DNA of 64,000 nt from Prevotella sp. GTDB lineage: Bacteria; Bacteroidota; Bacteroidia; Bacteroidales; Bacteroidaceae. Within the stretch, counting starts at the first letter, position 1. Each line of letters begins with the position of its first letter. Under the pieces are notes generated by a model. The model did no database searches and was not told the DNA's origin. It saw nothing but the letters and a program-made list of their open reading frames with translations. Shown one piece after another: positions 390 to 18,269 of this stretch. The translations under genes were made by a program, and so were the position numbers. Location: NCBI GenBank assembly GCA_017410365.1, contig JAFQQY010000033.1:1-64000 (forward strand), in the 5' to 3' direction.

Positions 390-555
390 TGTATAAGTGC
401 AAAATTACTAATAATTAGATAATTAGAAGTTGTTTTTTGCGAATATATTTTTTAATATGCCAATTATACTTTGACAAGATTCTGATAATTCTATAAGTTA
501 TTAATATAGAGAGAGTGCGAAAATGTGGGCTTTTTTGTATCACTTTATATTCGCA
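390..555 (-). promoter_or_regulatory. CRISPR leader
   Basis: This AT-rich stretch lies between the last repeat and the end of cas2. Position and repeat orientation make it the leader, holding the promoter for the leftward array transcript and the site where Cas1-Cas2 add spacers. No gene fits in it. The promoter itself was not pinpointed. Confidence 0.8.
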
Positions 556-3724: not shown

Positions 3725-3749
3725 GGTGACAGCATACGAAAAGACCCTA
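3725..3749. repeat. Left terminal inverted repeat of the transposon
   Basis: The outermost 25 bp begin GGTGAC and contain TACGAAAA. Aligned to the reverse complement of 18237-18261, 20 of 25 positions match: GGTGAC, TACGAAAA and ACCC are shared, and the mismatches are scattered. This is the expected outer recognition sequence for the DDE transposase at 16285-17403. Confidence 0.87.
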
Positions 3750-4281
3750 AACCCGTGACAAAATTTCTTGAAACCCCAATAAATAAAGGCGTCACGGCAA
3801 ATGGCGACAATTCGGAAAAATTTGGTAAAAACCACACTAAATCACTGGATTTTGTCATGAAAACCACACTAAAAGCCACTAAAAAGCCACGATTTTCTGT
3901 AAACTGCCATTAAAAAGTGGCTCTAAGACCATGTATGGCCACGGAAGAGCCACGAAAATTTGCCCAGAGTTTATAAAATCAGCTAAGCAACTCAAAAGAC
4001 CGCCTATGTGCCGTTGCTTAATTTCTTGGTCGGTGGTCTAAGAGGTTGCGTGGTATAGTGTTAGCACTTTGTTAGAAACCCCAATTATAATTTTCTCATA
4101 AGGATTGTAAAAATCCGTAGTACAGAAAAATTGAAGAATCATAAAACGATGCCCGCCTATTGTCTGAGAAGATAGTAGGCGGTTTTATTTGTCGTATGAT
4201 TTTTCAATCATATCTCAAATAAGTCTTTTACAACGCAATTATTAAGATAAATGTAAGACATAATTTGAAACAAAGAACGAT
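3750..4281. other. Left end of the transposon, gene-free
   Basis: No credible coding frame is present over about 530 bp. The stretch holds several GCCACG/GTCACGG motifs, including GGCCACGGAAGAGCCACG at 3937-3954, which recurs almost unchanged near the right end (18204-18222). Such subterminal repeats could bind transposase. A hairpin with a T-rich tail follows at 4153-4190. The promoter for the fibre operon presumably lies here but could not be assigned with confidence. Confidence 0.6.
4153..4190 (+). terminator. Hairpin with T-rich tail upstream of the fibre operon
   Basis: CCGCCTATTGTCT pairs with AGATAGTAGGCGG across a short GAGA-type loop, allowing two G-T pairs, and is followed by TTTTATTT. 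It looks like a rho-independent terminator on the plus strand. It could insulate the fibre operon from transcription entering through the left end, or act as a 5' attenuator for it. Confidence 0.6.
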
Positions 4282-5115
4282 ATGGCAGATAGAGTACAAT
4301 TCCGCAGAGACTTGGCCGTTAATTGGTATGCCTATAACCCAATACTTTTGGAAGGTGAAGTCGCTTTTGACATAGACACCGACCAGTATAAAGTAGGTGA
4401 TGGCGTACATAATTGGCGTGACCTTGTATATCGTGGCTTACCTTGCGTTCAGCAAAAAGGTACGTCAACGACAACCCCAATGTCACAAAAGGCGGTCACG
4501 GATGAACTAACCGAAATGCAAGCCGAGATAGATGCCTTGGTAGCAGGTGCAAAGATGGCGGTTACGGTATCGCCTGCTTGCATATACAAGAATGCTGCTA
4601 CTGAGGTTACAATCACCGCAACGGTCAGCAATGTTACGCCATCCGAGATTTCAATCCGAGAGGATAGCCAAAGCGGTACAGTTATAGCAACGAATACTGA
4701 TGCAAGAAGTGTTTCGATAAGGAAAACTTATACTTTGAATGATAACCAAAAGTCTTTCTTTGGACTTTCGACTTATAAGAGCATTAATATTAACGGCAGC
4801 GTAAACCTGCAAGCACGTTATCCGATTTTCTATGGCTTTGGACGTACTGCCGCTGATATTGCCGTTTCAGGTTCAAGACTTTCGGCACGTACATCCGCCA
4901 CGGGTTCATATCCATCGGTTACGGCTGCGGAAGATGGCGTGAATTACTATATTCTTGTTCCAACGGACATTCCTGCATTGTCGAGTTTCACGATGGGTGG
5001 CGCTCCATACGTTATGACCAGTACAACGGAAACTATCGAGGGTGTAACATATCGGGTTTACAAGTCTGGAGCCATATATAACACTGGTGCAGTGGTTCAA
5101 GTTGTAGCATCCTAA
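4282..5115 (+). CDS. Tail-fibre-like protein with tropism-determinant-type N-terminus
   Basis: The gene encodes 277 residues with no signal peptide. Residues 1-55 (MADRVQFRRDLAVNWY, GEVAFDIDTDQYKVGDG) match the small N-terminal fold of phage receptor-binding proteins of the Mtd/tail-fibre type, seen again in the protein at 6612. A linker GTSTTTPMSQKAVTDEL, a motif I recognise from Bacteroidales phage fibres, leads into a short helix. A beta-rich C-terminal part of about 180 residues follows, of unknown fold. It is the first gene of a tightly packed plus-strand operon, 15 bp before the next. A virion attachment or fibre-tip role is inferred from these motifs; no phage structural gene lies nearby. 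Confidence 0.7.
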   Translation: MADRVQFRRDLAVNWYAYNPILLEGEVAFDIDTDQYKVGDGVHNWRDLVYRGLPCVQQKGTSTTTPMSQKAVTDELTEMQAEIDALVAGAKMAVTVSPACIYKNAATEVTITATVSNVTPSEISIREDSQSGTVIATNTDARSVSIRKTYTLNDNQKSFFGLSTYKSININGSVNLQARYPIFYGFGRTAADIAVSGSRLSARTSATGSYPSVTAAEDGVNYYILVPTDIPALSSFTMGGAPYVMTSTTETIEGVTYRVYKSGAIYNTGAVVQVVAS

Positions 5116-5130
5116 AACGGAAAAATAGAT

Positions 5131-6315
5131 ATGACAAAGAAGAATATTACAAAAGGAAAGATAGGAAATGCGCTTACCTCAACCGCTGCCGACCACGTTG
5201 TAGCAGTAGCGCATGATATTTTTGACGAGGCAAAGCAGCAGTATCAATCGGAGATAAATCAGAACAATCAAGGTGTTATAGACTTTCTTGGTGTAGTTGC
5301 TATCACGTCAGACTATTTCACCGATGGAGCGTATATTACGACTGGTGCTGCCATTGGTACGATTATAGACATGTACAATACAACCGCTAATGAAGATTAT
5401 CGGTGTGCAATATTGGAGTGTCTGCATGGTCAGAAATTTACTATAAACGGAGAGGGTGGCACTGGCGCACGTCTCTGGGCTTTCGTTGATACTAATGGTA
5501 AGTTATTGACAGTTGCTTCACCTAATGCCGCAGGAAAGAATATTGTCATTGAGGCACCTACTAACGCAAGATACGTTATTTTCAATGACTATGGTTGCAC
5601 TGGTACATTCTTTATCGGTGAAACTAAGGTTAATGAGAATAATGAGAAATTGCAGAAGATGCTGCGCACTGTCACTAATGACACGTATCTTTCTGCGCTG
5701 ATAGATGGTGAGGGTCATATCCTTTGTGCATTTAAGACTGATGGTGAGGTATATATACCAAAAGGAATGTCCGAGGATGCGAAGAAAGCCGTTACTGCAC
5801 TCAACGTTTCACTTAACGATGAAGTAGAGGCACGTTCCAAGGTCATACGAGAGATTGAGCATAGCGATGGTCAGCAGTATCTATATGCCATTATAGACGC
5901 AGAGAGCAATGTTCTTTTGGCTTGCTATGAAGATGGTACTACATATATTCCAAAGGGAGTTCCCGAAGATGTTAAGAAGATTGTCAAGTTATTAGATGCA
6001 CGTTTGAACTTTCTTGAAGACAAAGTAAAGATTAGCAATCGTTCAGACTTTATTCTTGCTTTTGAGGATGCAGATGGTAAACTGCTTGGCGGTTGGAAAC
6101 TTGATGGCTCTTTATTCGTTCCAAGGGGTATGACGGAAGATGCTCGCAAGGCATTGGAAGATAACGTACTTTGTATTGAAATGGATGATGAAACGGGTGA
6201 TGTCTATGGTTTGTTTGGTGAAGATGGTAATATCGAGGACGTGACTATGGACGAGGAAACTGGCGATATAGTAGCCACGATGAGAGTAGAAGCAACAACA
6301 TTAATAAAAGAATAA
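5131..6315 (+). CDS. Fibre-like protein with three short internal repeats
   Basis: The gene encodes 394 residues without a signal peptide. After an N-terminal region (MTKKNITKGKIGNALTST) and a beta-rich domain, three repeats follow from about residue 185, each reading roughly Y/F-x-x-A-x-x-D-x-x-G/S-x-x-L, then K/E-D-G-x-x-Y/F-x-P-K/R-G-x-x-E-D. Examples are YIPKGMSEDAKK, YIPKGVPEDVKK and FVPRGMTEDARK. The same repeat occurs in the 1035-residue protein downstream, so the two share a modular stalk. The C-terminus is very acidic (DDETGD, DEETGD). The gene is 4 bp before the next one. A stalk or adaptor in a fibre-like assembly is the best guess. Confidence 0.6.
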   Translation: MTKKNITKGKIGNALTSTAADHVVAVAHDIFDEAKQQYQSEINQNNQGVIDFLGVVAITSDYFTDGAYITTGAAIGTIIDMYNTTANEDYRCAILECLHGQKFTINGEGGTGARLWAFVDTNGKLLTVASPNAAGKNIVIEAPTNARYVIFNDYGCTGTFFIGETKVNENNEKLQKMLRTVTNDTYLSALIDGEGHILCAFKTDGEVYIPKGMSEDAKKAVTALNVSLNDEVEARSKVIREIEHSDGQQYLYAIIDAESNVLLACYEDGTTYIPKGVPEDVKKIVKLLDARLNFLEDKVKISNRSDFILAFEDADGKLLGGWKLDGSLFVPRGMTEDARKALEDNVLCIEMDDETGDVYGLFGEDGNIEDVTMDEETGDIVATMRVEATTLIKE

Positions 6316-6319
6316 GAAT

Positions 6320-6598
6320 ATGGGAATAGTTAAAAAGTGGCTTGGTCGTTTGCCCGTAGTCGTAGGTGACAGCTGGGAAGATGGCAAGCCTTATCTCAAA
6401 AAAAATCGGGTCATACTATTTGGCAGTGAATTTGAGTCCAAAGAGGATAATAATCTTACACCGCCAGCAACGTATGACGAGGAAGCAAAGACTGTTACGT
6501 TCAACACTGAAAAGTGGCGTATTATTTCCAATGGTACTGACGCATGGTTAGCTGCCCAGAAAATCGACCAGATTGAGGGCGGTTTTGCCGTAGAATAA
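6320..6598 (+). CDS. Small fibre-operon protein, unknown
   Basis: This is a 92-residue protein with no signal peptide and no recognised domain (MGIVKKWLGRLPVVVGDSWE). It ends EGGFAVE, resembling the EGGFTLN ending of the protein at 6612, which hints at a shared C-terminal interaction tail. Spacing of 4 bp upstream and 13 bp downstream places it firmly in the fibre operon. Its small size and position suggest a connector or adaptor between larger fibre subunits, but that is inference from context only. Confidence 0.6.
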   Translation: MGIVKKWLGRLPVVVGDSWEDGKPYLKKNRVILFGSEFESKEDNNLTPPATYDEEAKTVTFNTEKWRIISNGTDAWLAAQKIDQIEGGFAVE

Positions 6599-6611
6599 AA
6601 CCGAATGAGTT

Positions 6612-6872
6612 ATGGCAGACAGAATGCAATTCAGACGAGACACTAAAGCAAATTGGGCGCATTACAATCCAATCCTATTTGATGGTGAGGTTGGTATTTG
6701 CACCGATGATGCTAATCTCTATAAGGTTGGTAATGGTGTTGACGCTTGGAACTCACTGCCCTTTCGTGGTTTTGATGGTACGGTGGTTCATACTACAGGA
6801 AACAGTACTAATGCGGTAATGTCACAAAAGGCGGTTACTGAGGAATTAGAGGGTGGTTTTACTTTGAATTAA
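6612..6872 (+). CDS. Minimal tropism-determinant-type N-terminal domain protein
   Basis: This 86-residue protein begins MADRMQFRRDTKANWAHYN and continues GEVGICTDDANLYKVGNG, a clear paralogue of residues 1-60 of the protein at 4282. It then has the linker GNSTNAVMSQKAVTEEL and stops, so it is only the attachment domain without a distal domain. It may be a standalone adaptor, or the remains of a once longer fibre. It sits 13 bp after the previous gene and 24 bp before the large CotH-like protein. Confidence 0.65.
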   Translation: MADRMQFRRDTKANWAHYNPILFDGEVGICTDDANLYKVGNGVDAWNSLPFRGFDGTVVHTTGNSTNAVMSQKAVTEELEGGFTLN

Positions 6873-6896
6873 CAAATTTCGTAATATTTCAATTAT

Positions 6897-9800
6897 ATGG
6901 GACAAATAGTAACAAAAAACGCAAGACCTAAGAGAGCGAATTTAATCGCAATCCAGACTGGTTCTTGGTCTGACTATGTGCCCTCTGCTAATGAGTTCAT
7001 CTTGGTTGATACGACCAATAGCATGACCGAGGGCGGTGAGGGCAAGTTTGATGCTTACATTGTCGGTGATGGTACTACCAAGGCACGGGATTTGAAGTTA
7101 TACGCAGACCAGCGTTTGATTTCAAATGACACCTATATCTTGGCGTTTACTGATGGTGAGGGCAGGGTTTTAATCGGTGTCCGCAAGGATGGTTCAACCT
7201 ATGTCGCAAAGGGTATTCCAGAAGACACAAGAAAGGAGTTGAACAACATTCTCAGTACGCTTGCTCAAATGGAGACTGATTGGTCACCAGAAATCTCTAA
7301 GTTGCAGTACGTTTTCATGATTCATCAGAATGACTACCTAACGGCATTTGTTGATATGCTCAACAATTTCCTATTCGGTGTCACAGCCAATGGTGATTTA
7401 GAAACGGCACGTAACATCATTATGAACAATACCAAGTTCTATGAGGGAGAGGGTGACGATGCGTTGTTCCACATCATCGATTCAAAACGTACTGTACTGC
7501 TCGACATTCTCAGCAATGGTCATATCGTTGCTGGTAACGGCATAACGCTTGACGGACGTAATAGCGGTGTATTCTATCGCAATTCGTTTGACTATCTCTT
7601 TGCTATGACGGATGCTAATGGTAAGGTATTGCTTGCCTATGACAAGCGCAAGGGTATCTACTGCCCGAAGATGACGGGTGTATTCGATGCCTATACCATT
7701 GACAACAAGGAGTATATCTTGGTATTTCTTGACCACAACGGCAATTTCCTTTGCGGTGTAAAGAAAGATGGCTCATTTGTAGCACCGAAGATTTCAATGG
7801 GTGGTATCAAGTACATTGAAAGTCCTGAGTTCATGTACGTTATTCTTGACGAGAGTGGTAAGATTCTTCAAGGCATCACCAGAAATGGAGAGACGTTTAT
7901 TCCAAAGGGTCAACCAGAGGAAACAAAGCAAGAAATTAAGGGAATGAAAAAACGTCTTGACACGTTGGAGGATATTCTCAATAACAGCGAGTTTAAGACT
8001 AAGGTTGACTATTCAGATAGTCCATTCCTACAAATACCAGAGCCACGTTATGCGGTAATTAATGTAATTTCTACCTTTAATCTGTCTAATCTCAGAAAGG
8101 CAGGATACAGCGGTGGTGTAAAGGGTGTAAACTATGACCTACCAACTCAGGTTGAGTTTTGGGATATGCAGGGTAATTACTTCAAGAAATGGACGTTAAT
8201 GTCTGCGCAAGGCAATTCGTCTATGGGATTCGTGAAGAAAAATCTCGCATTTGATTTTTTCAACCAAGACCCGACCGCAGAAGATTTTGATGAAGATGAT
8301 ACATTCTCATTCAGAATTGGAAATTGGGTTCCGCAAGATAGTTTCCATTTAAAAGCATATTATACAGACTTTTTCCGTGGCATTGGTCCATGTTCTTATG
8401 AACTTTATGAACGTATCGTAAAGACAAGAGGAAATAGAAAAGATAGACCTTGGAAGAAAGAACTGATTGATATGGATGCAATCGGAGTAACGTCCAAGAG
8501 TTTCGACAATCCTATTCAGGATGATTATGAACTGCAGTATGACACTGGTGCGCGTTGTTTCCCCGCAGGATTCCCTGTTATTGTTTTACAGAATGGCGTA
8601 TTCTATGGTGTGTACTCATGGCAGTTGAAGAAACACCGTGATAATATGCACCAGAGCAAATCAAAGCCTGAGCACATCCATCTTGACGGCACTCTTGCTC
8701 AGGCTTATATTTGGAATGGTAGAGCAAATATTGCTTGGGAGCAATTTGAAATTCGTAATCCTAAAAAATTGGTTTATGCTGAGCCGCATATTGATGCCGA
8801 AAGCGGAGATTATACATATAAGTACGATGGCGATGTAGCACAAGCAGAAATCGCAGGTACGGATGAAAAACTTGGTGCATATAAAGGCGATTGGTCTGCT
8901 GGGTATAATGATGGCAACGGCTATGAATTGAACGCTATTGTAAGATGGACTGACGAAAATAATGAAAAGCATTATTTCATCAATCAAGTAGATGATAACA
9001 AGAAAGAGCCTACTATTGATTTCGACAGAGAGAGAAATATTGATAAAGACCCTGACTTCAAGAACAAGACAAAGTGCGGCTGGATTAACTGCACTAATAC
9101 AGTTAAGGTGAAAGACTATATCATGAATCTTTCTGATAGAATTGCAGAATTGAAAGCCGCTGATGCCACTGGCGTATCTGCTGATGTTAAGGCTCTTTAT
9201 GAGCAATATTTCGACCCCGAAAATATTATTGACTACACCATCGTATCAGACCTTATCCGAAATGATGATGGTTATAGTAAGAACTGGCAGTGGTTCACTT
9301 ATGATGGTGTAAAGTGGTATGTCGGATTGTACGATGTTGACATGTCCTTTGGAGGTGACTTTAGAGGTGATAGGCTAAGAACTCCTATTAACTACCACAT
9401 GGGTACAAGCCTGAATATTCCTACTGGCTATATCAATAAGTATTACGATACAGAATTGAAAGCAAGATTCAAGGAATTGATGGACGCTGGTATTATCACC
9501 GCTGAGAGTATTTTCAGAATTGTCTATGATTGGACTATGCGTGTAAGCGAACATTACTTTGAGCAAGAATGGATTAAATGGTCTAATGCTCCATGTATTG
9601 GTGAAAGCGTTGTTAGAACGGCATATTGGGATGCTTTGCTTGATGAGCATAATAAGAAACTCACTATGACAGAGGCTCAGTTTAAGGCTCAAAATATCTA
9701 TGAGTTTGACCCAACCAACGTCAAAAAGGATGGAGATAATAATCCTATTTGGTATGACGAAGAGCATACAAAGACACTTGCTTATGCTGCTGGTGATAGA

Positions 9801-10004: not shown

Positions 10005-10021
10005 TGAAAATCCTCATAGTC
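9993..10021 (+). terminator. Perfect 9-bp hairpin across the end of the CotH-like gene
   Basis: GACTATGAG pairs exactly with CTCATAGTC across an 11-base loop, straddling the stop codon at 10002-10004. There is no T-tract, so it may limit read-through or protect the 3' end, letting the variable protein downstream be expressed at a different level from the fibre genes. Confidence 0.5.
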
Positions 10022-10109
10022 GAAAGCAGTATCATAAAATCAAATATTAGGTTACAAAGAAACCATTACAAGTAATTTTTAAGTTTAACAATTTTAAATC
10101 ACAACAAAG

Positions 10110-11705
10110 ATGGCAGAACAAAAATGTTTAGTCATTCAGACTCCTGGGGTTGCTACAGATAGCGACCTCAAGAAGCTGGAGAACTATGTAGGTATTGAGT
10201 TCCTGCGTGGTTCAAGTGATGGTGGTGGTGACAACGGCTATTATCGCATGATTGGCGATGAGACGCTTTTGAAGAGACTACCTATTCACAATGCAATCAA
10301 GAATGCGCTTGTCAAGTCTGGCGTGGTTACCACAAACCTCAATCAGGTGAATTGGAATCAGAGCGAGGCAGGTGCTGTAGTTTCGCTTGCTGGCGAGGAT
10401 GGTAGTGACGTGATTCAGACCTTCCCGAAGATGTACCTCATCAACGGTGGTTCTAATCCTAACTACATTCGTTACATTGTCAGTGATGATGCCTTCTCGT
10501 ATGATGGTGATGTAGCCAAGGAGGTAACAGCCTTTGGTGAGACACCTGACTATGAGACCCTGCTCAATGGTATCTCACGTTGTATCGCTAATGACACTGT
10601 GGCTGGCTCTCAGGGTGCTGGTCTTGGTACCAACTACAGCGACACATCGTTTGGTAACACGGCTGGTATGGGACGTCCAAAGACCCAGACAAGCCGTTAT
10701 GTGTATGAGTCATCTGCTCGTCAGAAGAACACTAACAAGAATACTAACCTGCCTTACTGCAATGCTACTCATCAGGATGCTGAGGTTATCCTTGCCCTGC
10801 TGTACATTGAGTGCCGCACACGTATTCTCGTTAATGTATTCGGTCATGGTATCTCCAGCAACGTTGCTCCAACGGAGGCAACTTGGGGAACTGTCAGCGG
10901 TGTACGTATCACGAAGCAAGACCAGACAAAGTTGTACTACACTCTGGGTGGTACGATTTTCGTCAATGGTACATCAAGCAACCTCTGGAATGCAATTAAC
11001 AATTCATTCCCATTGCTGAAGTGCTTGGAGGCTCAGAAAGCCGTTTCTGATGGCGCAACTCTGGAGCCTGTATATGATGCCGATGGTAACAAACTCGCAG
11101 GTATTGCCGAGGGTGTCATGACTGGTATCTGGACTAAGACATTCTCATTCTCTTTGGCTGGTTTTGCAACTACAGCTGCTGGCGAGACTGAGACTGTTAC
11201 AGTTGATGTTGTTCTGCGTGTTCCTATGTGGCGTGGTAAGACCAACTTCATGGGTAACGTATGGAGTTGGCGTTCTGGTGTTGAGGTTCTCAACTATATG
11301 GCAAGCGGTGTGACGCATAACGTTCTGTTCCGTGCTCCATCTATCGAGGCAATCGTTACCGATACAGACGAGGCAGTTAAGGCTGCTAAGGGTCAGTTCG
11401 CATTCGAGACCGCTTATGACGAGGTTTGTGACCTTGGCGCTAATAGCGGTTGGATGAAGGACGATGCCGTTGATGGCGATTGGAACTCAATCGTAGGTAT
11501 CAACGTAGGTGCTGCAATCAACAACTACATTTCGGCATATACCTATATCGCTGCAGGTGTTGAGGGCCAGTATGCTCGTCGTGGTGTTCGCGTGGGTGGC
11601 TCTGCGTCCGGTGCCTATGTGGTTCCTCGCCTTTGCGCTGCGTCCTTTGCTCCTTCCTATGCTGGTGCGGGCGTCGGCTCAGGCTTTCGTGTGGCCTTGG
11701 CCTAA
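10110..11705 (+). CDS. DGR variable protein, C-type-lectin-like C-terminus
   Basis: The gene encodes 531 residues, beginning MAEQKCLVIQTPGVATDSD, with no signal peptide. The C-terminal 150 residues look like the C-type-lectin/formylglycine-generating-enzyme fold used by DGR targets (WRGKTNFMGNVWSWRSG, then the terminal GSGFRV). Residues about 492-528 are encoded by the variable repeat. Relative to the template, 15 residues are altered, most at template Asn codons, giving Ser, Gly, Tyr, Leu, Ala and Phe. It is the probable receptor-binding or display protein of the cassette. A 105-bp gap with a hairpin separates it from the fibre operon upstream, and the small protein, template repeat and reverse transcriptase follow. 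Confidence 0.9.
   Translation: MAEQKCLVIQTPGVATDSDLKKLENYVGIEFLRGSSDGGGDNGYYRMIGDETLLKRLPIHNAIKNALVKSGVVTTNLNQVNWNQSEAGAVVSLAGEDGSDVIQTFPKMYLINGGSNPNYIRYIVSDDAFSYDGDVAKEVTAFGETPDYETLLNGISRCIANDTVAGSQGAGLGTNYSDTSFGNTAGMGRPKTQTSRYVYESSARQKNTNKNTNLPYCNATHQDAEVILALLYIECRTRILVNVFGHGISSNVAPTEATWGTVSGVRITKQDQTKLYYTLGGTIFVNGTSSNLWNAINNSFPLLKCLEAQKAVSDGATLEPVYDADGNKLAGIAEGVMTGIWTKTFSFSLAGFATTAAGETETVTVDVVLRVPMWRGKTNFMGNVWSWRSGVEVLNYMASGVTHNVLFRAPSIEAIVTDTDEAVKAAKGQFAFETAYDEVCDLGANSGWMKDDAVDGDWNSIVGINVGAAINNYISAYTYIAAGVEGQYARRGVRVGGSASGAYVVPRLCAASFAPSYAGAGVGSGFRVALA
11582..11694 (+). repeat. DGR variable repeat (VR)
   Basis: These 113 bp align without gaps to the template repeat at 12335-12447. I counted 27 differences, all where the template has A; none of the non-A positions differ, and 27 of the 30 template adenines are changed. 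This is the signature of adenine-specific mutagenic retrohoming. The VR lies at the very 3' end of the variable-protein gene, ending 11 bp before its last base. Confidence 0.97.
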
Positions 11706-11806
11706 ATCGAAAGTCTGCGAGCACTTGCCCCGCAAACAAAGATTGCTGCGTAAGCGGAAATCGACTTGCGGCACAAGGCAACTGGTAAGTGCGAGCAATA
11801 ATTAAA

Positions 11807-11853
11807 GGTGGTTAGGAGCTGGTTTCATCCACATGGCCACACTCCTAACCGCC
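11807..11853 (+). terminator. Hairpin downstream of the VR
   Basis: GGTGGTTAGGAG pairs with CTCCTAACCGCC (one G-T pair) across a 23-base loop, about 110 bp after the VR. Hairpins just downstream of VR are known to help target recognition in other DGRs. It could equally be an intergenic terminator or attenuator before the next gene, although no T-tract follows. Confidence 0.55.
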
Positions 11854-11899
11854 TTATACTAAAAGAAACGTTTAACAACAAATTAAAATAGAAAAGATT

Positions 11900-12229
11900 A
11901 TGTATATTCAGAATTTAGCCTCAGCTGAACAACCTCAGTTGCAGGATTGGGGCGATAAGAAACATGTTCCTCTGAATGTCCGTGAGGTAGAGGGTGTTGA
12001 CGAGAATGGCGACCCCAAGACCAGTTATCTTCATGACTGCGTTGAAAAGGTTGATACACCTATCACGGTTGACAATATCGTCAAGGCTGCTGTCGAGGCA
12101 GAGTTCAGCGCAGAAGAGCGTGAGTATGTTACTCGCAATTTCTCTAAGCGCAAGGATGCACTCGTCAAGCGTTACAAGGACTTTGTCGAGGACATCACCG
12201 ACAAGGCTGAGGCTGCTGGTTATGAGTAA
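11900..12229 (+). CDS. Small acidic DGR-cassette protein (not clearly Avd)
   Basis: The gene encodes 109 residues between the variable protein and the template repeat, the place usually occupied by the accessory protein Avd. Avd is a basic four-helix bundle. This protein instead has a beta-type N-terminal half (MYIQNLASAEQPQLQDWGDK, HVPLNVREVEGVDENGD) and only a helical C-terminal part (AEEREYVTRNFSKRKDALV). It may be a distinct accessory factor, a fibre chaperone or an ordinary phage-type protein. No family was recognised. The start is supported by an AT-rich leader typical of Bacteroidetes. Confidence 0.65.
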   Translation: MYIQNLASAEQPQLQDWGDKKHVPLNVREVEGVDENGDPKTSYLHDCVEKVDTPITVDNIVKAAVEAEFSAEEREYVTRNFSKRKDALVKRYKDFVEDITDKAEAAGYE

Positions 12230-12585
12230 TCGGTAGTTTCTCCTGCTAAGTGTGCAATGGTAAGACAGCCGTCAATGTTCCCCCAAGGGTATTATAGGTT
12301 TGTAATGTAAGCGGAAAGGGTGAGCGTGGCGGGTTGGTGTTCACGTGGGTGGCAATGCGAACAATGACAATGTGGTTCCTCGCAATTGCAATGCGAACAA
12401 TGCTCCATCCAATGCTAATACGAACATCGGCTCAGGCTTTAGAGTGGGAAGTAAATGCGAACAACTCTTGCCACGCTCATCCTCACCAGCAGGGTGAAAG
12501 ATAACAGACAAGGCAACGTAGTACGAGGTTGCTTGCTTATTAGTAGTGAATTAACGAAAGTTAGCAGAAATGGCTTTCCACACGA
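12230..12585 (+). ncRNA. Template-repeat RNA region of the DGR
   Basis: There is no coding frame between the small protein and the reverse transcriptase. The stretch contains the template repeat at 12335-12447 with about 105 bp before and 138 bp after it, the arrangement in which DGR template RNA is transcribed. A TAAGCGGAAA motif at 12308-12317 also occurs after the VR at 11751-11760, and a GTAAATGCGAACAA motif just after TR recurs after VR in altered form. These flanks probably belong to the functional RNA. Confidence 0.75.
12335..12447 (+). repeat. DGR template repeat (TR)
   Basis: This 113-bp template is rich in AAC/AAT codons when read in the VR frame, which maximises amino-acid diversity after A mutagenesis. 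It aligns gap-free with VR 11582-11694, with changes only at TR adenines. It lies 753 bp downstream of the VR and 138 bp upstream of the reverse-transcriptase start, in the same orientation. Confidence 0.97.
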
Positions 12586-14052
12586 ATGAATACAGTTGCT
12601 AATGCTTGGGAAAGTTTTGTTCAGGATGATAACATAAGGAAAGCAATTCACGATTCCAGCCAAGATAAGCTGGATATGGCTTATGTTCAACGAGTAAACC
12701 GAAATCTTGAGTATTATGTAAACGAATTAAAACGCATGTTCCTGACGGGTACTTATCATATGCACCCATTTCAGGAAATGTCAAAGAAAAGTGGAAACAA
12801 GATAAGACATATCAAAAAGTCGCCATTCTATCCTGACCGCATCACGCAGCACATGGTTGCTAATGTAATGCTACCACGTTGGGATAAATCGCTTACAAAT
12901 ACAACTTATGCCAGTTGGAAGAAAAGAGGAATAAACAGCAAGGTCAAAGATTATAACTTCAACCACAAATTGCGAAGTGAAATAGATTCATATCCGCTAT
13001 CGGTTGAACTCTATGCGTTGAATCTTGATTTTCTGCATTGCTATGATAGCGTAGATGCCGATGTCATGATGTACGTAGTGCGTAAGTTTCTCCGCAACGA
13101 GAAACTTATTGCTGTTATAGAGGAATTTGTACGCAAGACGAAAGGCATACCGCTGGGCAGCTATCTCAGTCAGTTGCTTATAAACATTCTTCTTGAACTT
13201 GTTAATCGTTTCTGTCTTGAAGTTCTACATGTAACGCCATTTCGCTACATGGATAATATTGTAATCGTTGGAACTGACAAGCATGAATTACATCAGGTTC
13301 AGTGGCGCATAATGCAATTTGTCTGGTATGAATTGCACATGGAAATAAATCGCCATCGGCAAGTATTTCCTATCGGACGTAATCGTGATGAAAGAGGTAT
13401 TGACGTAGTAGGCTATGTTTATTATCGGACATTCACACTTATAAGGAAATCTATAAAGGTTGCGGCATATCGCAAACGCCATAAGCCTAAGAGTATGTCG
13501 AGTTACTTTGGGCTGATGCAGAAATGCGATGCTATAAACCTGATGAAAAGTATTAGACGTAAAATCAAAGAAGACAAGAAACAAAGAGACTGTATGCAGA
13601 AGTTGACCGACATAAAGCATATCAAGAAAGTCGAAAGACCGTTTGGTGGTAAGAAAATCAAGATTGAAAAAGTCGTTGATAAGCCAATCGTTGTGCTTGA
13701 TTGTGGCATCTTCAATAGCATAAAGAGACCTGGGACTACATTCGTAAAACTCCAGATTGTCTTCAAGAAAAAGAAACGCTTTATCTCAGGAAACTACAAG
13801 CTGATAAAGAAAGTTGTCCGTCAGATAGACCGAAAGACCGACCTGCCTTTTGAGACTGTGATACGCTTCAATCGAGGTTACTATTTTGAAGGTACTTTGA
13901 AAGAGGATGATGATTATATGTACGACCCATCCGAGGAATTGGAATTTGACGATTCTGATGGCAATTGGTTGAATGAGAAGAAAAAGAAAACGCTGCCGTT
14001 CTATAATGAAGAATTAGACGAAGATTTGGATGATGAAGAGCAAGAGGAATAA
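12586..14052 (+). CDS. DGR reverse transcriptase
   Basis: The gene encodes 488 residues, longer than many DGR enzymes because of a basic, then acidic, C-terminal extension. Motifs in order are RHIKKSPFYPDRITQHM (fingers), YASWKKRG, catalytic Asp at about 148 in LDFLHCYDSVD, the DGR-type I-P-L-G-S-x-x-S-Q at 188-196, the active-site box YMDN at 221-224, and DVVGYVYY (thumb side). The G-x-x-x-S-Q form separates DGR enzymes from retron and group II intron types. The second Asp of the usual Y-x-D-D box is Asn here. The enzyme would copy TR RNA with A-specific errors and replace VR. It follows the TR region in the same strand. Confidence 0.93.
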   Translation: MNTVANAWESFVQDDNIRKAIHDSSQDKLDMAYVQRVNRNLEYYVNELKRMFLTGTYHMHPFQEMSKKSGNKIRHIKKSPFYPDRITQHMVANVMLPRWDKSLTNTTYASWKKRGINSKVKDYNFNHKLRSEIDSYPLSVELYALNLDFLHCYDSVDADVMMYVVRKFLRNEKLIAVIEEFVRKTKGIPLGSYLSQLLINILLELVNRFCLEVLHVTPFRYMDNIVIVGTDKHELHQVQWRIMQFVWYELHMEINRHRQVFPIGRNRDERGIDVVGYVYYRTFTLIRKSIKVAAYRKRHKPKSMSSYFGLMQKCDAINLMKSIRRKIKEDKKQRDCMQKLTDIKHIKKVERPFGGKKIKIEKVVDKPIVVLDCGIFNSIKRPGTTFVKLQIVFKKKKRFISGNYKLIKKVVRQIDRKTDLPFETVIRFNRGYYFEGTLKEDDDYMYDPSEELEFDDSDGNWLNEKKKKTLPFYNEELDEDLDDEEQEE

Positions 14053-14188
14053 GACCGCCTCAGCGTTTATACAGCTATAAAGATACCAGTTAATGGTTTG
14101 CCATAAATATGATAAGGACTGAGTAGGGCATCTATCGGCTATCATCTATCAATCACATTTGATAACCCCTGCCTGAAAAGTCCTTTTT

Positions 14189-14219
14189 AATGAGGGTAGT
14201 CTTACAAACCACCCTCATT
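14189..14219. terminator. Bidirectional terminator between converging halves of the element
   Basis: AATGAGGGT pairs with ACCCTCATT, with TTTTTAA before and TTTCCTTTTT after it. It separates the reverse transcriptase (plus strand) from the minus-strand gene ending at 14226, and has T-runs suitable for both directions. Confidence 0.75.
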
Positions 14220-14225
14220 TCCTTT

Positions 14226-14705
14226 TTATCCATCATACCATTCATCTTCTCCATCGTCTTTATACAGATAATAACTTTCCTTCAATATCTTTTCCATCAT
14301 ATCTACAGCAGCATCAAGCAGACAAGAGCCCGATGCACTTAAACGACAAATGCCGTTATCGGTAACGTACTTAATGGAATTTCTATTAATGACAAGTTTA
14401 AATGTAAATGGTTCTTCATTGTCGATAACGTTTCCATCTTCATCGTAGGCAGATGGTATCGTATCGGGTAGCATATGAATAAGTTTACCCAGAGACCAAG
14501 CAGCCGAATGGTATTTGCTTGTTTCCGCTTTCTTCAAGTCCGATGGAGCCTCAATCCTAATCGGCTTTTCCCTGACGTTCATAACACCATCGACTTTCTC
14601 AAAGGTTGAATCGACAATGTAATCCGCAGTCCTAAGTTTCAGACCAGCATAAAAGAGCCGTTTACTTTGCTCTAAGTTTGTAATAGAATAATTGCGCATA
14701 AGCAT
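14226..14705 (-). CDS. Unknown protein of the transposon
   Basis: The gene encodes 159 residues that are soluble and mostly acidic, with no signal peptide or membrane segment. The sequence includes SAAWSLGKLIHMLPDTI and a negatively charged end (DDGEDEWYDG). I do not recognise a family; the style resembles uncharacterised phage or plasmid proteins of Bacteroidales. It converges on the reverse transcriptase through a shared terminator. Either Met1 or Met3 could be the start. Nothing in its position says whether it serves the DGR or the transposase. Confidence 0.55.
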   Translation of the reverse strand: MLMRNYSITNLEQSKRLFYAGLKLRTADYIVDSTFEKVDGVMNVREKPIRIEAPSDLKKAETSKYHSAAWSLGKLIHMLPDTIPSAYDEDGNVIDNEEPFTFKLVINRNSIKYVTDNGICRLSASGSCLLDAAVDMMEKILKESYYLYKDDGEDEWYDG

Positions 14706-14777
14706 GAGTTTTATAAGTGAGCGTATAAGTTACTATCTGAATAGTGAAGGGCAGCGAGCAAGGCAGGAAACTTGGTG

Positions 14778-15155
14778 TTATGTGGTTTCCTTGTCCTTTG
14801 ACATCTTTTCTAAAAGTTCTTCCATCTTTCGATAATGCTCTTCACGTTCCTGACGTTCTTCTTCTGCATTTTCTTCGAGCATCTTTTTCTTAATAGCCTT
14901 TGATGATGCATACCCCATAAGTGGAGTGGAAATTATCATAAGGATAAGATACAACGGAGAAAAATACATATATGACAGAACATTTAATATGTCGCTGAAT
15001 TTAAGCGCATGTCTGATATCGGTCATTGTAGAAAGCAGAATGATTACAAATCCCATAAAAATTGGGAATACAATACCGAAACCTACAATCCATTTAACGA
15101 CTGTCATTTGGAAATGTAGTTTGCCCCTTTCTTCAATTTCTTCTAATGTGTACAT
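14778..15155 (-). CDS. Small two-helix membrane protein
   Basis: The gene encodes 125 residues. Two hydrophobic segments (about residues 21-45, IVGFGIVFPIFMGFVIILL, and about 60-85, around MYFSPLYLILMIIS) are followed by a long charged C-terminal helix rich in Glu and Lys that is probably a coiled coil on the cytoplasmic side. No family was recognised. It is separated by 72 bp from the next minus-strand gene. Small membrane proteins in mobile elements are sometimes immunity or superinfection factors, but nothing here shows that directly. Confidence 0.55.
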   Translation of the reverse strand: MYTLEEIEERGKLHFQMTVVKWIVGFGIVFPIFMGFVIILLSTMTDIRHALKFSDILNVLSYMYFSPLYLILMIISTPLMGYASSKAIKKKMLEENAEEERQEREEHYRKMEELLEKMSKDKETT

Positions 15156-15156
15156 A

Positions 15157-15332
15157 TTGGCGATATTTTACGAGTTTAACAATTTGAATGAAAAGGTGGA
15201 CTGCTCCATCCGTCACACCTCGTAGAGTATCGCCAAACACTCGTCTATATGCACAGATGGGCAGCCCACTTGTATGAACTGCCGTCTGTGCCTCCATATA
15301 GACCCATGTTTAAATTTGGCGATTTTAACGAG
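15157..15332. ncRNA. Highly structured non-coding stretch
   Basis: TTGGCGATATTTTACGAG at 15157-15174 is mirrored by CTCGTAGAGTATCGCCAA at 15219-15236, and a direct copy of the first arm recurs at 15316-15332. Between them is a very strong hairpin, 15243-15303, with arms GTCTATATG/CATATAGAC, CACAGA/TCTGTG and GGCAG/CTGCC. No T-tract follows, and no open frame covers it. It may be a small RNA, a regulatory leader for the gene at 14778, or a protein-binding site array. Confidence 0.6.
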
Positions 15333-15408
15333 GGTGAGACACATTCGTCGGTGCAAAGATACGAAATGTTTGGCGAATAAAAGAGCATTTTACGAAAAAC
15401 TTTATTAT

Positions 15409-15597
15409 TTATTGTTCTGGAGCGTTATCTTCATTAGATAAATAATCAATAATTTCGTTGCAGAGGGCATTCAATTCTCTAAAGTTTAACAATGGAAGTC
15501 CGTGTGACGTTCCATCTTTTACAGCCGATACACGAATGTTACGTTCATCCTTGTCTGTAAAGTCGTCCTTTTCTATTTTGAATTTGTAGGCACTCAT
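15409..15597 (-). CDS. Small unknown protein
   Basis: The gene encodes 62 residues (MSAYKFKIEKDDFTDKDERN) that are charged, soluble and of no recognised family. Its ATG overlaps the stop codon of the upstream gene by 4 bp (ATGA), which supports that it is truly translated as part of a two-gene unit. The predicted pattern is a beta hairpin followed by a helix. It could be half of a small two-component module with its neighbour. Confidence 0.5.
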   Translation of the reverse strand: MSAYKFKIEKDDFTDKDERNIRVSAVKDGTSHGLPLLNFRELNALCNEIIDYLSNEDNAPEQ

Positions 15598-15803
15598 AAT
15601 TCGTAATCTAATAAAGATTGTATAGTGGCATTAATTTCATCATCATTCGCAAAATTTCCACCGCTAAATAAAAGCATGTGTGGAGTTTTGTCCTCATTAA
15701 GAAGATAGCAAGCAATTGATATTTTATCATCCTTGTTGAATTTTTGAATATCAATTTGTTCAGGATATGCCTGCTGAAATAGCATTAAAGTATATCTTGT
15801 CAT
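15594..15803 (-). CDS. Small unknown protein, coupled to the next gene
   Basis: The gene encodes 69 residues (MTRYTLMLFQQAYPEQIDIQ) that are soluble and mildly acidic, with no known motif. It overlaps the downstream 62-residue gene by 4 bp. Together with the 60-residue gene just upstream (19 bp away) this forms a run of three tiny genes between the structured stretch and the transposase. The function is unknown. Confidence 0.5.
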   Translation of the reverse strand: MTRYTLMLFQQAYPEQIDIQKFNKDDKISIACYLLNEDKTPHMLLFSGGNFANDDEINATIQSLLDYEL

Positions 15804-15822
15804 AATCTAAGCGTTATTAATG

Positions 15823-16005
15823 TTATTTTCCATAAAATGCTTTTCTGAATGCTTGTTCTAAGAGGTCTGCCGTATGATGTAAGGCGGGGTCATTTACTCT
15901 ACTTTCAAAGCGGTTGTTATTATCTGTGTTAATATCCAACCAAGAGTTGCATCTAATTCTATTCATAATCTCAATATCTAAATATTTCTTCTGTGAATAA
16001 TTCAT
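15823..16005 (-). CDS. Small unknown protein
   Basis: The gene encodes 60 residues (MNYSQKKYLDIEIMNRIRCN), with a helical C-terminus (LLEQAFRKAFYG) and no signal peptide. No family was recognised. It is the first of three closely spaced minus-strand mini-genes. The spacing supports that it is real, but it could also be a chance frame in AT-rich DNA. Confidence 0.4.
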   Translation of the reverse strand: MNYSQKKYLDIEIMNRIRCNSWLDINTDNNNRFESRVNDPALHHTADLLEQAFRKAFYGK

Positions 16006-16094
16006 CTATCAAACTCTGCCACGCACGATGCTTACACCGCTCAGTGGTTATGATAGCCCAAAGGCTAAAGATGGGGATAATAGCAACAATCATT

Positions 16095-16487
16095 TTAATT
16101 CGGAATACCACTTAATCCAAATAATATCACTGTATTTTGTTCAAACTCAGCTTCATCTGCTAATAGTTCATCCATGATGACATCGAAATCTACAGAAACA
16201 TTATTCTCTTGCATTTCTAATTCAAGTTGTCGCCTGCGTTCAACGAAATACGGCTCATCACTGTCAAGTAGAGGAATGTAGCATCTACCCTTGGGATGCT
16301 TGGCTTTCTTGCCCTGCTTGGAAACCTGCTTTGAAAGCTGCTTCGACCTTTGCTTGCTGTTGAGCAGCTTTCTTTGCTTTCTTTTCTTCTTTAGCCTGCT
16401 CTTTTCTTTCTTGCTCTTCTTTCCAGATTGGCCATTGTTCGTCTGCAATTTCAAGGAGCTGTCTTCTGTTACGTTCTTTGAATTCAT
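16095..16487 (-). CDS. Alternative-frame frame overlapping the transposase 3' end
   Basis: A 130-codon frame begins inside the transposase gene in a different frame and runs 190 bp past the transposase stop. The overlapped part is a lysine-rich shadow of the transposase tail. The unique part (GRCYIPLLDSDEPYFVERRR, LELEMQENNVSVDFDVI, then MDELLADEAEFEQNT) has normal protein composition and looks coding. It could be a frameshifted transposase extension, a separate gene with a non-ATG start near 16290, or a relic. Confidence in translation from the ATG at 16487 is low. Confidence 0.3.
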   Translation of the reverse strand: MNSKNVTEDSSLKLQTNNGQSGKKSKKEKSRLKKKRKQRKLLNSKQRSKQLSKQVSKQGKKAKHPKGRCYIPLLDSDEPYFVERRRQLELEMQENNVSVDFDVIMDELLADEAEFEQNTVILFGLSGIPN

Positions 16488-17403
16488 TTACAATTTCGTT
16501 ATAAGTTGTTTGGTACTCAATGTTATCGAAAAATTCTTCAAATCTTTCCTTGTCAGTAACTTTGCGAGTGTTATAACGAAACGCAAATTCATCAAAATAT
16601 CGGTGCATATGAGCACCGCTACACATATTATAGCAACCAGAGAAAGAACGTTTGCAGAAATTTCCCCAAAAGCCTTCAATGTTATTTGTATAGGCATCGT
16701 CAATTACATATTTACCCTTGCCGTGGTCAACTACCTTATGGTTATACTCTTTCTTGATTGTATTATATCCTTGCCACTCATCCATATAGAGCATAGCATC
16801 TTTATCTACAGTTTCACGTATTGGTTTGGTAAGAGATTTAGACTTGGTGTCTATTGTCACTTTACATACGACAATGCCGTTACGTTGTAGCATACCCATT
16901 ACGGCTGTCTTGTCTGCATGGGAGCGACCTTGTGATTTGGGTAATCTCTTATTCTTATGACGAAACTGATTCTTGCCTCCAACAAAAGTTTCATCAAGTT
17001 CTATTTCGCCAGCGAGCAGTCCGCCAGTATAGACGAATGCGCCACGGATTTTCATTAGCATAAGCCAAGCAGATTTGGGTGTGATACTAACGTCTCTTGC
17101 TAATTGTAATGCAGATAGACCTTTCTTTCTGGAGGTAAGCAGATAGATTGCGAAAAACCACTTCCAAAGAGGTATTTTAGAGCCGTGAAATATCGTGCCA
17201 ACCGTGACATTAAAATTCTTACCAGTTTTTCCGCAACGATATTTCCCGTCACCACGCTTGTAAACTTTTGCCTCTGAATCGTATGGAGATACTACTCTTT
17301 TAGGCCAACGTTTCTTTTCCAGAAACCTAATGCAACTTTGCTCTGTGGGGAATGCCTTGTGAAAGTTGCTAAAATCCGTGAAGTTTAATTTTACCTTTTT
17401 CAT
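16285..17403 (-). CDS. IS1595-family (ISXO2-type) transposase
   Basis: The gene encodes 372 residues. The N-terminal part follows the IS1595 zinc-ribbon layout but keeps only Cys57 of the expected four cysteines (SPYDSEAKVYKRGDGKYRCG). The DDE-type domain shows EIELDETFVGG (Asp137), LYMDEWQGYN (Asp208), TNNIEGFWGNFCKR (Asn241/Glu243) and the ISXO2 signature HRYFDEFAFRYNTR. A lysine- and glutamine-rich tail from about 330 is extra. It is the only mobility gene seen between the terminal inverted repeats, and the 8-bp target duplication is what this family makes. It should catalyse cut-and-paste or cointegrate movement of the whole element. Confidence 0.92.
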   Translation of the reverse strand: MKKVKLNFTDFSNFHKAFPTEQSCIRFLEKKRWPKRVVSPYDSEAKVYKRGDGKYRCGKTGKNFNVTVGTIFHGSKIPLWKWFFAIYLLTSRKKGLSALQLARDVSITPKSAWLMLMKIRGAFVYTGGLLAGEIELDETFVGGKNQFRHKNKRLPKSQGRSHADKTAVMGMLQRNGIVVCKVTIDTKSKSLTKPIRETVDKDAMLYMDEWQGYNTIKKEYNHKVVDHGKGKYVIDDAYTNNIEGFWGNFCKRSFSGCYNMCSGAHMHRYFDEFAFRYNTRKVTDKERFEEFFDNIEYQTTYNEIVNEFKERNRRQLLEIADEQWPIWKEEQERKEQAKEEKKAKKAAQQQAKVEAAFKAGFQAGQESQASQG

Positions 17404-17891
17404 ATTGACAAATCTTTAAGTTACTTACTTTGTCATAAATAACTTTGCAAAGGTTTTGTCACGATATTAAAATTCCTTTAGATTGTTAAAATTGACAAGA
17501 AGTTAATCCGAGTTGTTCGTTTGGAAATTGGGGAAATGTTCTATTAACATAAAGTTTCTTAACAGCGTTTTATAATATCGGAGTGCTTGGATGGCTGTAG
17601 TCCCAACTGACGAGTAGGCGGTGCGTTGCACCTTGGAAGCACTGACTAAAAATATAATATGAGCCCCGCAGCAGTGGTAGGACTCTCATATGCTGCAATT
17701 TTCGTTCTTTGAATACATTATTATATAGTGCTGTGATTTGACGATTAGGAGTTGAAACCATACTCAGGTTCAGGGTATAAGTGACGGGAAGACAATTCTG
17801 GTGCGGTCTGCCAAAGCAAGGAAATAGGAAAGTAGCAAAGAACGGCACTATTATTTATAAGAGGACTGAGGGAGAGTTCATTCACACCAGA

Positions 17892-18005
17892 TTAACGTCT
17901 TGTATAATACGCAACAAGTTCCCATTGGCCCTGAGAGTTGCGCTCAAAACGTGAAAAGAGAAATATTAAATTATCCATCTTTATTCGTTGTTTTGATTTG
18001 GACAT
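17892..18005 (-). CDS. Possible 37-residue peptide
   Basis: An ATG at 18005 opens a frame reading MSKSKQRIKMDNLIFLFSRF and ending VAYYTRR. It lies downstream of the leftward promoter-like box near 18085, and the same frame stays open for another 45 codons past the stop. Composition is protein-like, but length and lack of known relatives leave it doubtful; the region may be a structured RNA instead. Confidence 0.2.
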   Translation of the reverse strand: MSKSKQRIKMDNLIFLFSRFERNSQGQWELVAYYTRR

Positions 18006-18203
18006 TTAAAGTGTCCTTGTTAAATTGAGCGTTCTGTGTATAGAGTTCCCTCAGTCCTTATTTCTTTGTCATTCTTTTGCGGTTGCAAAGGTACAAAATA
18101 AAATCCGAATAATGACAACGTTTAGAAAAATAGCCGCTTACCACTTAGCAAACGGCTTTGTTATTATGATGGCCACGGCAGTGCCACGCTTGCGTCACGG
18201 TTG

Positions 18204-18222
18204 GGCCACGGGAGAGCCACGG
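18204..18222. repeat. Right subterminal repeat GGCCACGGGAGAGCCACGG
   Basis: This stretch matches 3937-3954 near the left end at 17 of 18 positions, in the same orientation. Further GCCACGG copies lie just to its left (18174-18190). Clustered motifs inside both ends of a transposon are typical of accessory transposase-binding sites. Confidence 0.6.
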
Positions 18223-18236
18223 CTTTCAAAAAATCA

Positions 18237-18261
18237 TGGGGTATTTTCGTAAACGGTCACC
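18237..18261. repeat. Right terminal inverted repeat of the transposon
   Basis: Read on the minus strand it begins GGTGACCG and contains TACGAAAA, matching 20 of 25 positions of the left end (3725-3749). It also supplies the final 11 foreign codons of the truncated Cas8c reading frame. Confidence 0.87.
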
Positions 18262-18269
18262 CTCACGAT
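18262..18269. repeat. Right target-site duplication CTCACGAT
   Basis: This is an exact copy of 3717-3724. On the minus strand it reads ATCGTGAG and carries the last native cas8c codons before the element. Confidence 0.9.

What the first reader, a model, noticed from the sequence alone, without database searches (positions are those of the whole stretch)
3725..18261. A transposon that carries a complete diversity-generating retroelement and fibre-like proteins
Seen: inverted repeats (20/25 match), exact 8-bp duplication, an IS1595/ISXO2-type transposase as the only mobility gene, and between them a DGR (VR, TR, RT) plus tail-fibre-like genes. Known: DGRs are usually in phages, prophages or fixed chromosomal sites, and IS1595-family elements duplicate 8 bp. 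Inference: a mobile unit that spreads a self-diversifying binding module by transposition. I do not know of this combination being described as one mobile element.
Basis: partly seen in the sequence, partly recalled or inferred. Interest (0 to 1): 0.92.

Follow-up and report, generated by a model that had tools for sequence, protein, structure and literature searches.

The report
Transposon carrying a phage tail-fibre diversifier
A 14.5-kb jumping DNA element in a Prevotella-related bacterium carries a block of phage tail-fibre genes together with machinery that mutates the fibre tip, and it has landed inside a CRISPR defence gene; transposons as carriers of such machinery have been proposed before, but this is an unusually clear single case whose function is untested.

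Summary
Bases 3725-18261 form one transposon: exact 8-bp duplication, 20/25-matching ends, one full-length IS1595-family transposase, and GCCAC pairs spaced 11 bp that occur in the window only near its two ends. It splits cas8c of a type I-C CRISPR operon; leaving it out gives one 590-codon ORF, and 5 of 5 relatives with cas8c have it uninterrupted. Inside is a DGR: TR and VR differ at 27 of 113 positions, all TR adenines.

The cargo is phage-derived: VR protein, 109-aa gene, TR and RT lie in the same order, beside an endolysin gene, in six loci, none with this transposase nearby. A sibling transposon in another genome has the same two passenger genes but other cargo, so the DGR module fills a cargo slot.

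Limits: one copy, no second insertion found. The RT has YMDN where the six close relatives have YMDD, so present activity is uncertain; the clean TR/VR pair argues for recent activity, and other DGRs with YxDN exist. That DGRs travel on transposons was published in 2012. New here are the vehicle, the precise borders and the phage receptor-binding cargo. Its use is unknown; no related portal gene was found in the (89.4% complete) genome.

The parts
3717..3724 (.). target-site duplication, left copy (CTCACGAT)
   Evidence: exact match to 18262-18269; removal of one copy plus the element gives one cas8c ORF
3725..3749 (+). left inverted end
   Evidence: 20/25 identical to the right end; 18/22 against 12-15/22 in 20 shuffles
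3870..3955 (+). left subterminal GCCAC pairs spaced 11 bp (3875/3886, 3938/3949)
   Evidence: four such pairs in 64 kb, two near each end; 200 shuffles mean 0.05, maximum 1; motif chosen after seeing it
4282..5115 (+). fibre-like protein, 277 aa, Mtd_N domain
   Evidence: PF18454 5.5e-12; phrog_6049 tail fiber 1.5e-12
5131..6315 (+). fibre-repeat protein, 394 aa
   Evidence: phrog_4201 tail fiber 8.6e-7; repeats match six phage-type loci
6320..6598 (+). small protein, 92 aa, no family
6612..6872 (+). short Mtd_N protein, 86 aa
   Evidence: PF18454 3e-12; 44% to the start of a 403-aa protein in phage contig L104
6897..10004 (+). fibre/CotH-kinase-like protein, 1035 aa
   Evidence: PF08757 2.1e-10; 44% over residues 169-647 to phage contig L102
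10110..11705 (+). DGR target protein, 531 aa, VR at its C-terminus
   Evidence: 45-47% to proteins in six phage-type loci
11582..11694 (+). variable repeat (VR)
   Evidence: 27 of 113 positions differ from TR, all at TR adenines
11900..12229 (+). 109-aa protein between VR and TR, conserved in the phage module, not recognised as Avd
   Evidence: 41-47% in six loci; no Pfam match
12335..12447 (+). template repeat (TR), non-coding
12586..14052 (+). DGR reverse transcriptase, 488 aa; motif 4 LGSYLSQ, motif 5 YMDN
   Evidence: PF00078; phrog_1423 1.9e-55; 39-45% to six phage-type RTs
14226..14705 (-). transposon passenger gene, 159 aa
   Evidence: 83% identical in sibling transposon L061
14778..15155 (-). 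transposon passenger gene, 125 aa, membrane-like by eye
   Evidence: 41% in sibling transposon L061, same order
15409..16005 (-). three small ORFs (62, 69, 60 aa), no Pfam family
16285..17403 (-). IS1595-family (ISXO2-like) transposase, 372 aa, full length
   Evidence: motifs DETFVGGK / MDEW / NNIEGFW..KR aligned with four relatives
18167..18225 (+). right subterminal GCCAC pairs spaced 11 bp (18172/18183, 18205/18216)
18237..18261 (-). right inverted end
18262..18269 (.). target-site duplication, right copy
18270..19752 (-). interrupted cas8c, N-terminal part (type I-C)
   Evidence: TIGR01863 8.4e-92, profile 1-495 of 588, searched as ORF 18226-19752, which runs 44 bases into the TSD and element
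3435..3716 (-). interrupted cas8c, C-terminal part
   Evidence: 66% to the C-terminus of intact Cas8c in L200, directly following the N part there

Best explanation
It is a 14,537-bp IS1595-family transposon with passenger genes. Next to the transposase it keeps two passenger genes that it shares with a sibling transposon; the far cargo slot, between these and the left end, holds what looks like a whole receptor-binding module of a Bacteroidales phage: Mtd_N and fibre-repeat proteins, a fibre/CotH protein, a DGR target protein, a 109-aa gene, the TR and the DGR reverse transcriptase. Shown: borders, duplication, interrupted gene and inferred empty site, sibling transposon with other cargo, phage kinship of the module, A-only TR/VR differences. 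Inferred: the transposase moved the whole unit into cas8c recently; the module came from a phage or prophage; the DGR was active until recently. By eye the fibre proteins have no export signal and would need a phage particle to act, so the module is most likely a hitch-hiking phage part that gains dispersal by the transposon and may be picked up again by phages through recombination. Loss of Cas8c is probably a side effect.
For: TSD and ends, not reached by 20 shuffles; GCCAC pairs near both ends only; continuous 590-codon cas8c after removing element and one TSD and uninterrupted cas8c in 5 of 5 relatives that have it; single full-length transposase; sibling transposon L061 (3461 bp, TSD ATTATTAA, GGTGA ends 16/22, same two passengers, no DGR); two further IS1595 elements with TSD and 22/22 ends, one with a restriction gene; VR protein, 109-aa gene and RT in the same order in 6 loci, each beside an endolysin gene; none of 84 RT loci holds the transposase in its stored stretch; TR/VR, also in 6 of 6 module relatives.
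Against: One copy found; no second copy of the ends among 398 genus genomes at up to 1 mismatch. Module relatives are only 39-47% identical in VR protein, 109-aa gene and RT, so the donor is unsampled and capture is not seen. The fibre part varies: similarity over the CotH region in 5 of 6 loci, Mtd_N in 1 of 6 (in L104 below the Pfam cut-off), so 'whole module' is a judgement. RT YMDN against YMDD in 6 of 6 close relatives suggests loss of the DGR after capture. The second Mtd_N gene is short (86 aa against 403 aa in L104). The 159-aa gene has distant matches in two genomes with no transposase in the held stretch (L185, 14.6 kb; L085, 3.2 kb), so it is not tied to this transposon alone. No phrog_156 portal in the genome.
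Confidence: 0.82

Rival explanations
1. A prophage remnant: a phage carrying this tail module integrated here, decayed to its tail-fibre part, and an IS1595 element landed beside it; the flanking repeats are coincidence.
For: The module is phage-type.
Against: Exact 8-bp TSD with matching ends at the outer borders of module plus transposase, GCCAC pairs near both outer ends, and cas8c that reads through when exactly this unit is left out. No capsid, portal, terminase or integrase family matched the element's proteins searched.
Confidence: 0.05
2. A dead passenger: the transposon caught phage DNA by accident, its RT is now inactive (YMDN), and the module decays without function.
For: YMDN against YMDD in 6 of 6 close relatives; shortened second Mtd_N gene; no phrog_156 portal in the genome.
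Against: The module ORFs are open; within the 113-bp pair TR and VR are identical at all 83 non-adenine positions, so little neutral decay since the last DGR round; three other DGRs with YxDN have TR/VR pairs with 0, 1 and 0 non-A differences in the best 70 bp.
Confidence: 0.35
3. A fibre shuttle under selection: the transposon moves receptor-binding modules between phages and chromosomes, or supplies diversified fibres in trans to resident phages, changing which cells they reach.
For: The cargo runs from fibre genes to the RT with no other recognised phage gene, and the slot holds other genes in a sibling.
Against: No second DGR-carrying sibling found (single queries found no relative at all); no phrog_156 portal in this genome.
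Confidence: 0.15
4. A defence or decoy device of the bacterium: fibres made in the cell block receptors or spoil incoming phages.
For: A related IS1595 element, L065, carries a methyl-dependent restriction enzyme (PADLOC mREase_II 3.8e-105). The 159-aa gene has a weak PADLOC match to BrxA (E 0.0012, 16.2 bits, residues 60-153).
Against: Of six element proteins scanned with PADLOC (RT, 159-aa, 125-aa, 109-aa, 92-aa, VR protein) only the RT, by general RT/DRT/CRISPR-RT models, and the weak BrxA match appear. No export signal by eye.
Confidence: 0.05

Closest known systems
IS1595-family elements with passenger genes (Siguier, Gagnevin and Chandler 2009, seen only as a reference-list entry in PMC3942029; details recalled)
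   Same: Transposase family, 8-bp duplications here and in three relatives, extra genes beside the transposase
   Different: 14.5 kb, cargo a phage receptor-binding module with a DGR, subterminal GCCAC pairs
DGRs reported on transposons and plasmids (DiGReF paper 2012, PMC3521204, passages read)
   Same: DGR thought to travel on a non-phage mobile element (Tn7-type sequences in Vibrio, plasmid in Shewanella)
   Different: In the passages those are cases of vicinity; here ends, duplication and empty site are defined, the vehicle is IS1595, and the target is a phage-type fibre module
Hankyphage, transposable Bacteroides phage with a DGR (PMC12135933, passages read)
   Same: DGR on a fibre gene, moved by transposition
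   Different: A phage that makes virions and has a MuA-like transposase; here no capsid, portal or packaging family matched. RT about 27% identical
DGR tail module in G210 (L062/L100) and phage contig L102
   Same: VR protein, 109-aa gene, TR and RT in the same order, 40-47% identical in VR protein and RT
   Different: G210: contig with portal, terminase, holin, endolysin and integrase matches; no IS1595 transposase in the pieces searched; RT YMDD
DGR loci shaped by transposons in Thiohalocapsa PB-PSB1 (PMC10907252, passages read)
   Same: Transposons take part in DGR evolution; that paper also cites transposon-linked transfer of a DGR between Gammaproteobacteria and transposons beside DGRs in CPR and DPANN
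   Different: In the passages read transposons break or duplicate DGR parts; no single transposon is shown bounding a DGR with its target

Membership tests
IS1595-family transposon | ISXO2/IS1595 transposase domain with conserved motifs | tested here: met
   PF12762 1.9e-36 full length, NF033547 4.8e-52, motifs aligned with four relatives
IS1595-family transposon | 8-bp target duplication (family value recalled and in the finding) | tested here: met
   CTCACGAT twice; L061, L065, L067 also 8 bp, but found by a search fixed at 8 bp
IS1595-family transposon | terminal inverted repeats | tested here: met
   20/25, 18/22 against 12-15/22 in 20 shuffles
IS1595-family transposon | actual transposition | not testable with these tools
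   no reads; no second copy found in the genome
Diversity-generating retroelement | TR/VR pair with substitutions at TR adenines | tested here: met
   27 of 27 mismatches at A over 113 bp
Diversity-generating retroelement | RT with SQ motif | tested here: met
   LGSYLSQ at residues 190-196; phrog_1423; SQ as a clade mark is a heading in PMC3521204
Diversity-generating retroelement | YxDD in RT motif 5 (recalled) | tested here: not met
   YMDN; YMDD in 6 of 6 close relatives, but YxDN in 4 of 27 aligned relatives, three of which were checked and have TR/VR
Diversity-generating retroelement | accessory gene avd (recalled) | tested here: inconclusive
   109-aa gene between VR and TR, no Pfam match
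Diversity-generating retroelement | ongoing diversification | not testable with these tools
   needs reads
Prophage | capsid, portal, terminase or integrase genes | tested here: not met
   none matched among the element's proteins searched with Pfam and PHROGs; no phrog_156 portal in the genome

The most novel reading that the evidence does not exclude
A dedicated fibre shuttle: a transposon family with an exchangeable cargo slot that moves complete self-diversifying phage receptor-binding modules between phage genomes and bacterial chromosomes, so that a phage's targeting device evolves and travels apart from the phage.
Probability: 0.15. Interest if true: 0.85.

Novelty: new variant of a known kind. 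Interest (0 to 1): 0.55.

Why it matters
DGRs are sporadically spread (PMC3521204 abstract, seen's passages), and in the passages read the vehicle is inferred mostly from vicinity. Here one vehicle has exact borders, an inferred empty site and a sibling with other cargo. If the unit is mobile, phage receptor-binding modules can move and diversify outside phages, and the landing in cas8c would remove CRISPR interference in the same step (inference).

Tried and rejected
Prophage-remnant reading: rejected because ends, duplication and cas8c read-through fit the whole unit. Second copies: the ends pattern with up to 1 mismatch in 398 genus genomes gave 7 matches in 6 genomes, 2 of them the element itself; the other 5 lie inside open reading frames, and the reversed control pattern hit 3 genomes, so these are taken as chance. 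Transposase query in genome contigs and RT, VR-protein and p159 queries in viral contigs found no relative; only the RT alignment did. In the genomes searched for both transposase and RT no shared contig appeared among the listed matches, the window's own apart. CRISPR spacers (6, the first cut by the window edge) match nothing in the loci then held or the rest of the window beyond 14 bases. Rfam: no match in 3500-18500 up to E 0.5. The hairpin after VR (z -1.1) and the fold of 17560-18060 (z -0.5) are not better than shuffles. VR protein: no solved relative, none in phage records. No further end-like site of 13 or more of 18 in window 1-22000, so a build by one-ended transposition is not visible. 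No convincing ends for L064, L066, L087, L088; L086 was not scanned. Aligned RTs: 27 of 29 loci; two gave no row. One YxDN locus, L057, was not checked for TR/VR.
Full report
What is there. The stretch 3725-18261 (14,537 bp) is bounded by an exact 8-bp duplication, CTCACGAT, and by ends that match at 20 of 25 positions. The best duplication-plus-ends pair in a 16.6-kb stretch around it scores 18 of 22; 20 shuffled sequences gave 12 to 15. GCCAC pairs spaced 11 bp occur four times in the 64-kb window, two within about 230 bp of the left end and two within about 90 bp of the right end; 200 shuffles gave a mean of 0.05 and a maximum of 1. The motif was chosen after seeing it, so the number is a guide only, and the sibling element L061 lacks it; still it ties the two ends to one element. 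Such sites may bind the transposase (inference).

The organism. G210, of the same genus, matches a contig of the same length titled 'uncultured Prevotellaceae bacterium', so the host is a Prevotellaceae member (inference).

Where it landed. To the right lie cas5, a gene without an NCBIfam match above cut-off and cas3; to the left cas7, cas4, cas1, cas2 and a CRISPR array (cas4 and cas2 named by eye). The element splits cas8c: the right part matches TIGR01863 positions 1-495 of 588. With the element and one duplication copy left out, the two parts form one open frame, 594 codons between stops and 590 from its ATG. Of 50 genomes searched 6 had cas8c, own included; in all 5 relatives the matches of our two parts follow one another directly, in L200 within one 567-codon frame (in L202 and L203 the C-part match is weak, about 1e-4). 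The frame is intact on both sides, so the insertion is probably recent (inference).

The transposase. The 372-aa protein is a full-length IS1595/ISXO2-type transposase with the conserved motifs of four relatives, two of them from Bacteroidales plasmids. It is the only such domain found in the genome, which has 55 contigs and is 89.4% complete. Relatives of it were found in 34 of 149 genomes, own included, mostly distant.

A sibling with other cargo. In G032 (L061) a 3461-bp element with duplication ATTATTAA and GGTGA-type ends (16 of 22) carries a broken transposase of the same kind (51% over residues 149-289), the 125-aa gene (41%) and the 159-aa gene (83%), in the same order. In place of the DGR module it has other small genes, one of them GIY-YIG-like just below the Pfam cut-off. 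Two more distant elements, L065 (6132 bp) and L067 (3691 bp), have 22/22 ends and 8-bp duplications; L065 carries several genes, one a methyl-dependent restriction enzyme, and L067 at least one ORF of 271 aa beside its transposase. So this transposon type carries varied genes, and the DGR module sits in a cargo slot. The 159-aa gene is rare: 3 of 298 relatives and 4 of 398 genus genomes, own genome included each time. Against a strict link, its two distant matches (G257, G059) have no transposase in the stretches held.

The cargo. In order: Mtd_N protein, fibre-repeat protein, 92-aa protein, short Mtd_N protein, CotH/fibre protein, VR protein, 109-aa protein, TR, RT. The RT alignment found 4 relatives in genome contigs (L100 is by length and place the G210 contig) and 126 in viral contigs, of which the best 80 were kept. 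Of these 84 loci, 6 (L098, L099, L100, L102, L103, L104) hold VR protein, 109-aa gene and RT in the same order, with fibre repeats before them in 6 of 6, similarity over the CotH region in 5 of 6 and over Mtd_N in 1 of 6 (Pfam CotH in 3 of 5 tested, Mtd_N in L104 below cut-off). None of the 84 holds the transposase or the two passenger genes in its stored stretch, and the whole records of L098, L099, L102 and L103 have no PF12762 match. An endolysin gene follows the RT within 4 kb in all 6; in G210 the contig also has portal, terminase, holin and integrase matches. L102-L104 are IMG/VR contigs. The module is therefore phage-type. A full-length VR protein is rare in the genus: of 398 genomes only G000 and G210 matched over the whole length; 7 more had partial matches.

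The DGR. TR and VR differ at 27 of 113 positions, every time at one of the 30 TR adenines; the 83 other positions are identical. The borders of the pair were set by a score tolerant of mismatches at A. All 6 module relatives have a TR/VR pair with no non-A difference in the best 70 bp. PADLOC's RT, DRT and CRISPR-RT models also match the RT, but TR and VR decide for a DGR. Motif 5 of the RT reads YMDN; all 6 close relatives have YMDD. Among 27 aligned RTs of the genus 4 have YxDN, and the three of these that I checked have TR/VR pairs of their own. So YMDN may mean loss or may be tolerated. The DiGReF authors took a clean TR/VR pair as a sign that an RT was lost only recently (PMC3521204, passage); the same argument holds here.

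How it most likely works. Shown: a unit with ends, duplication, transposase and inferred empty site. Inferred: it moved by its own transposase; its ancestor took up a phage receptor-binding module; the DGR was active until recently. By eye the fibre proteins have no export signal, so they would need a phage particle. No Mtd_N was found elsewhere in the genome and no phrog_156 portal, so here the module is probably idle. Whether phages take it back by recombination is open.

What is known. DGRs moving with phages, transposons and plasmids were reported in 2012 (PMC3521204, passages); a 2021 survey considered mobile elements as early carriers (PMC8144416, passages); a 2024 PNAS paper discusses transposons at DGR loci and cites transposon-linked DGR transfer (PMC10907252, passages); the hankyphage is a transposable phage with a DGR (PMC12135933, passages). 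A study of Bacteroides DGRs by Macadangdang et al. was not held; only its citation was seen. A search for DGR with IS1595 gave no paper. Other searches listed 20 of 31, 20 of 143, 13 of 13, 10 of 304 and 15 of 410 papers; no listed title or abstract start describes such an element, and most were not opened. The specific combination was thus not found in what I saw; the general idea is known.

Verdict. Spread by transposition is plausible but rests on one copy. A new variant of a known kind.

Noticed in passing
L093 (G189), L094 (G198), L095 (G066): DGR reverse transcriptases with YxDN instead of YxDD that have their own A-biased TR/VR pairs, so the second aspartate may not be essential in that DGR lineage.
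   Followed up: partly
L065:7737-13868: A 6132-bp IS1595-type element with identical 22-bp ends and 8-bp duplication that carries a PvuRts1I-like methyl-dependent restriction enzyme.
   Followed up: partly
window 20446-21309: A 287-aa gene between cas3 and cas5 in the type I-C operon, without an NCBIfam match above cut-off; by eye it resembles phage antirepressors.
   Followed up: no
window 3870-3955 and 18167-18225: GCCAC pairs spaced 11 bp near both ends of the element, in the same orientation; possible transposase binding sites.
   Followed up: partly
window 30-393: CRISPR array with 6 repeats beside a type I-C operon whose cas8c is interrupted; spacers match nothing in the loci held.
   Followed up: partly
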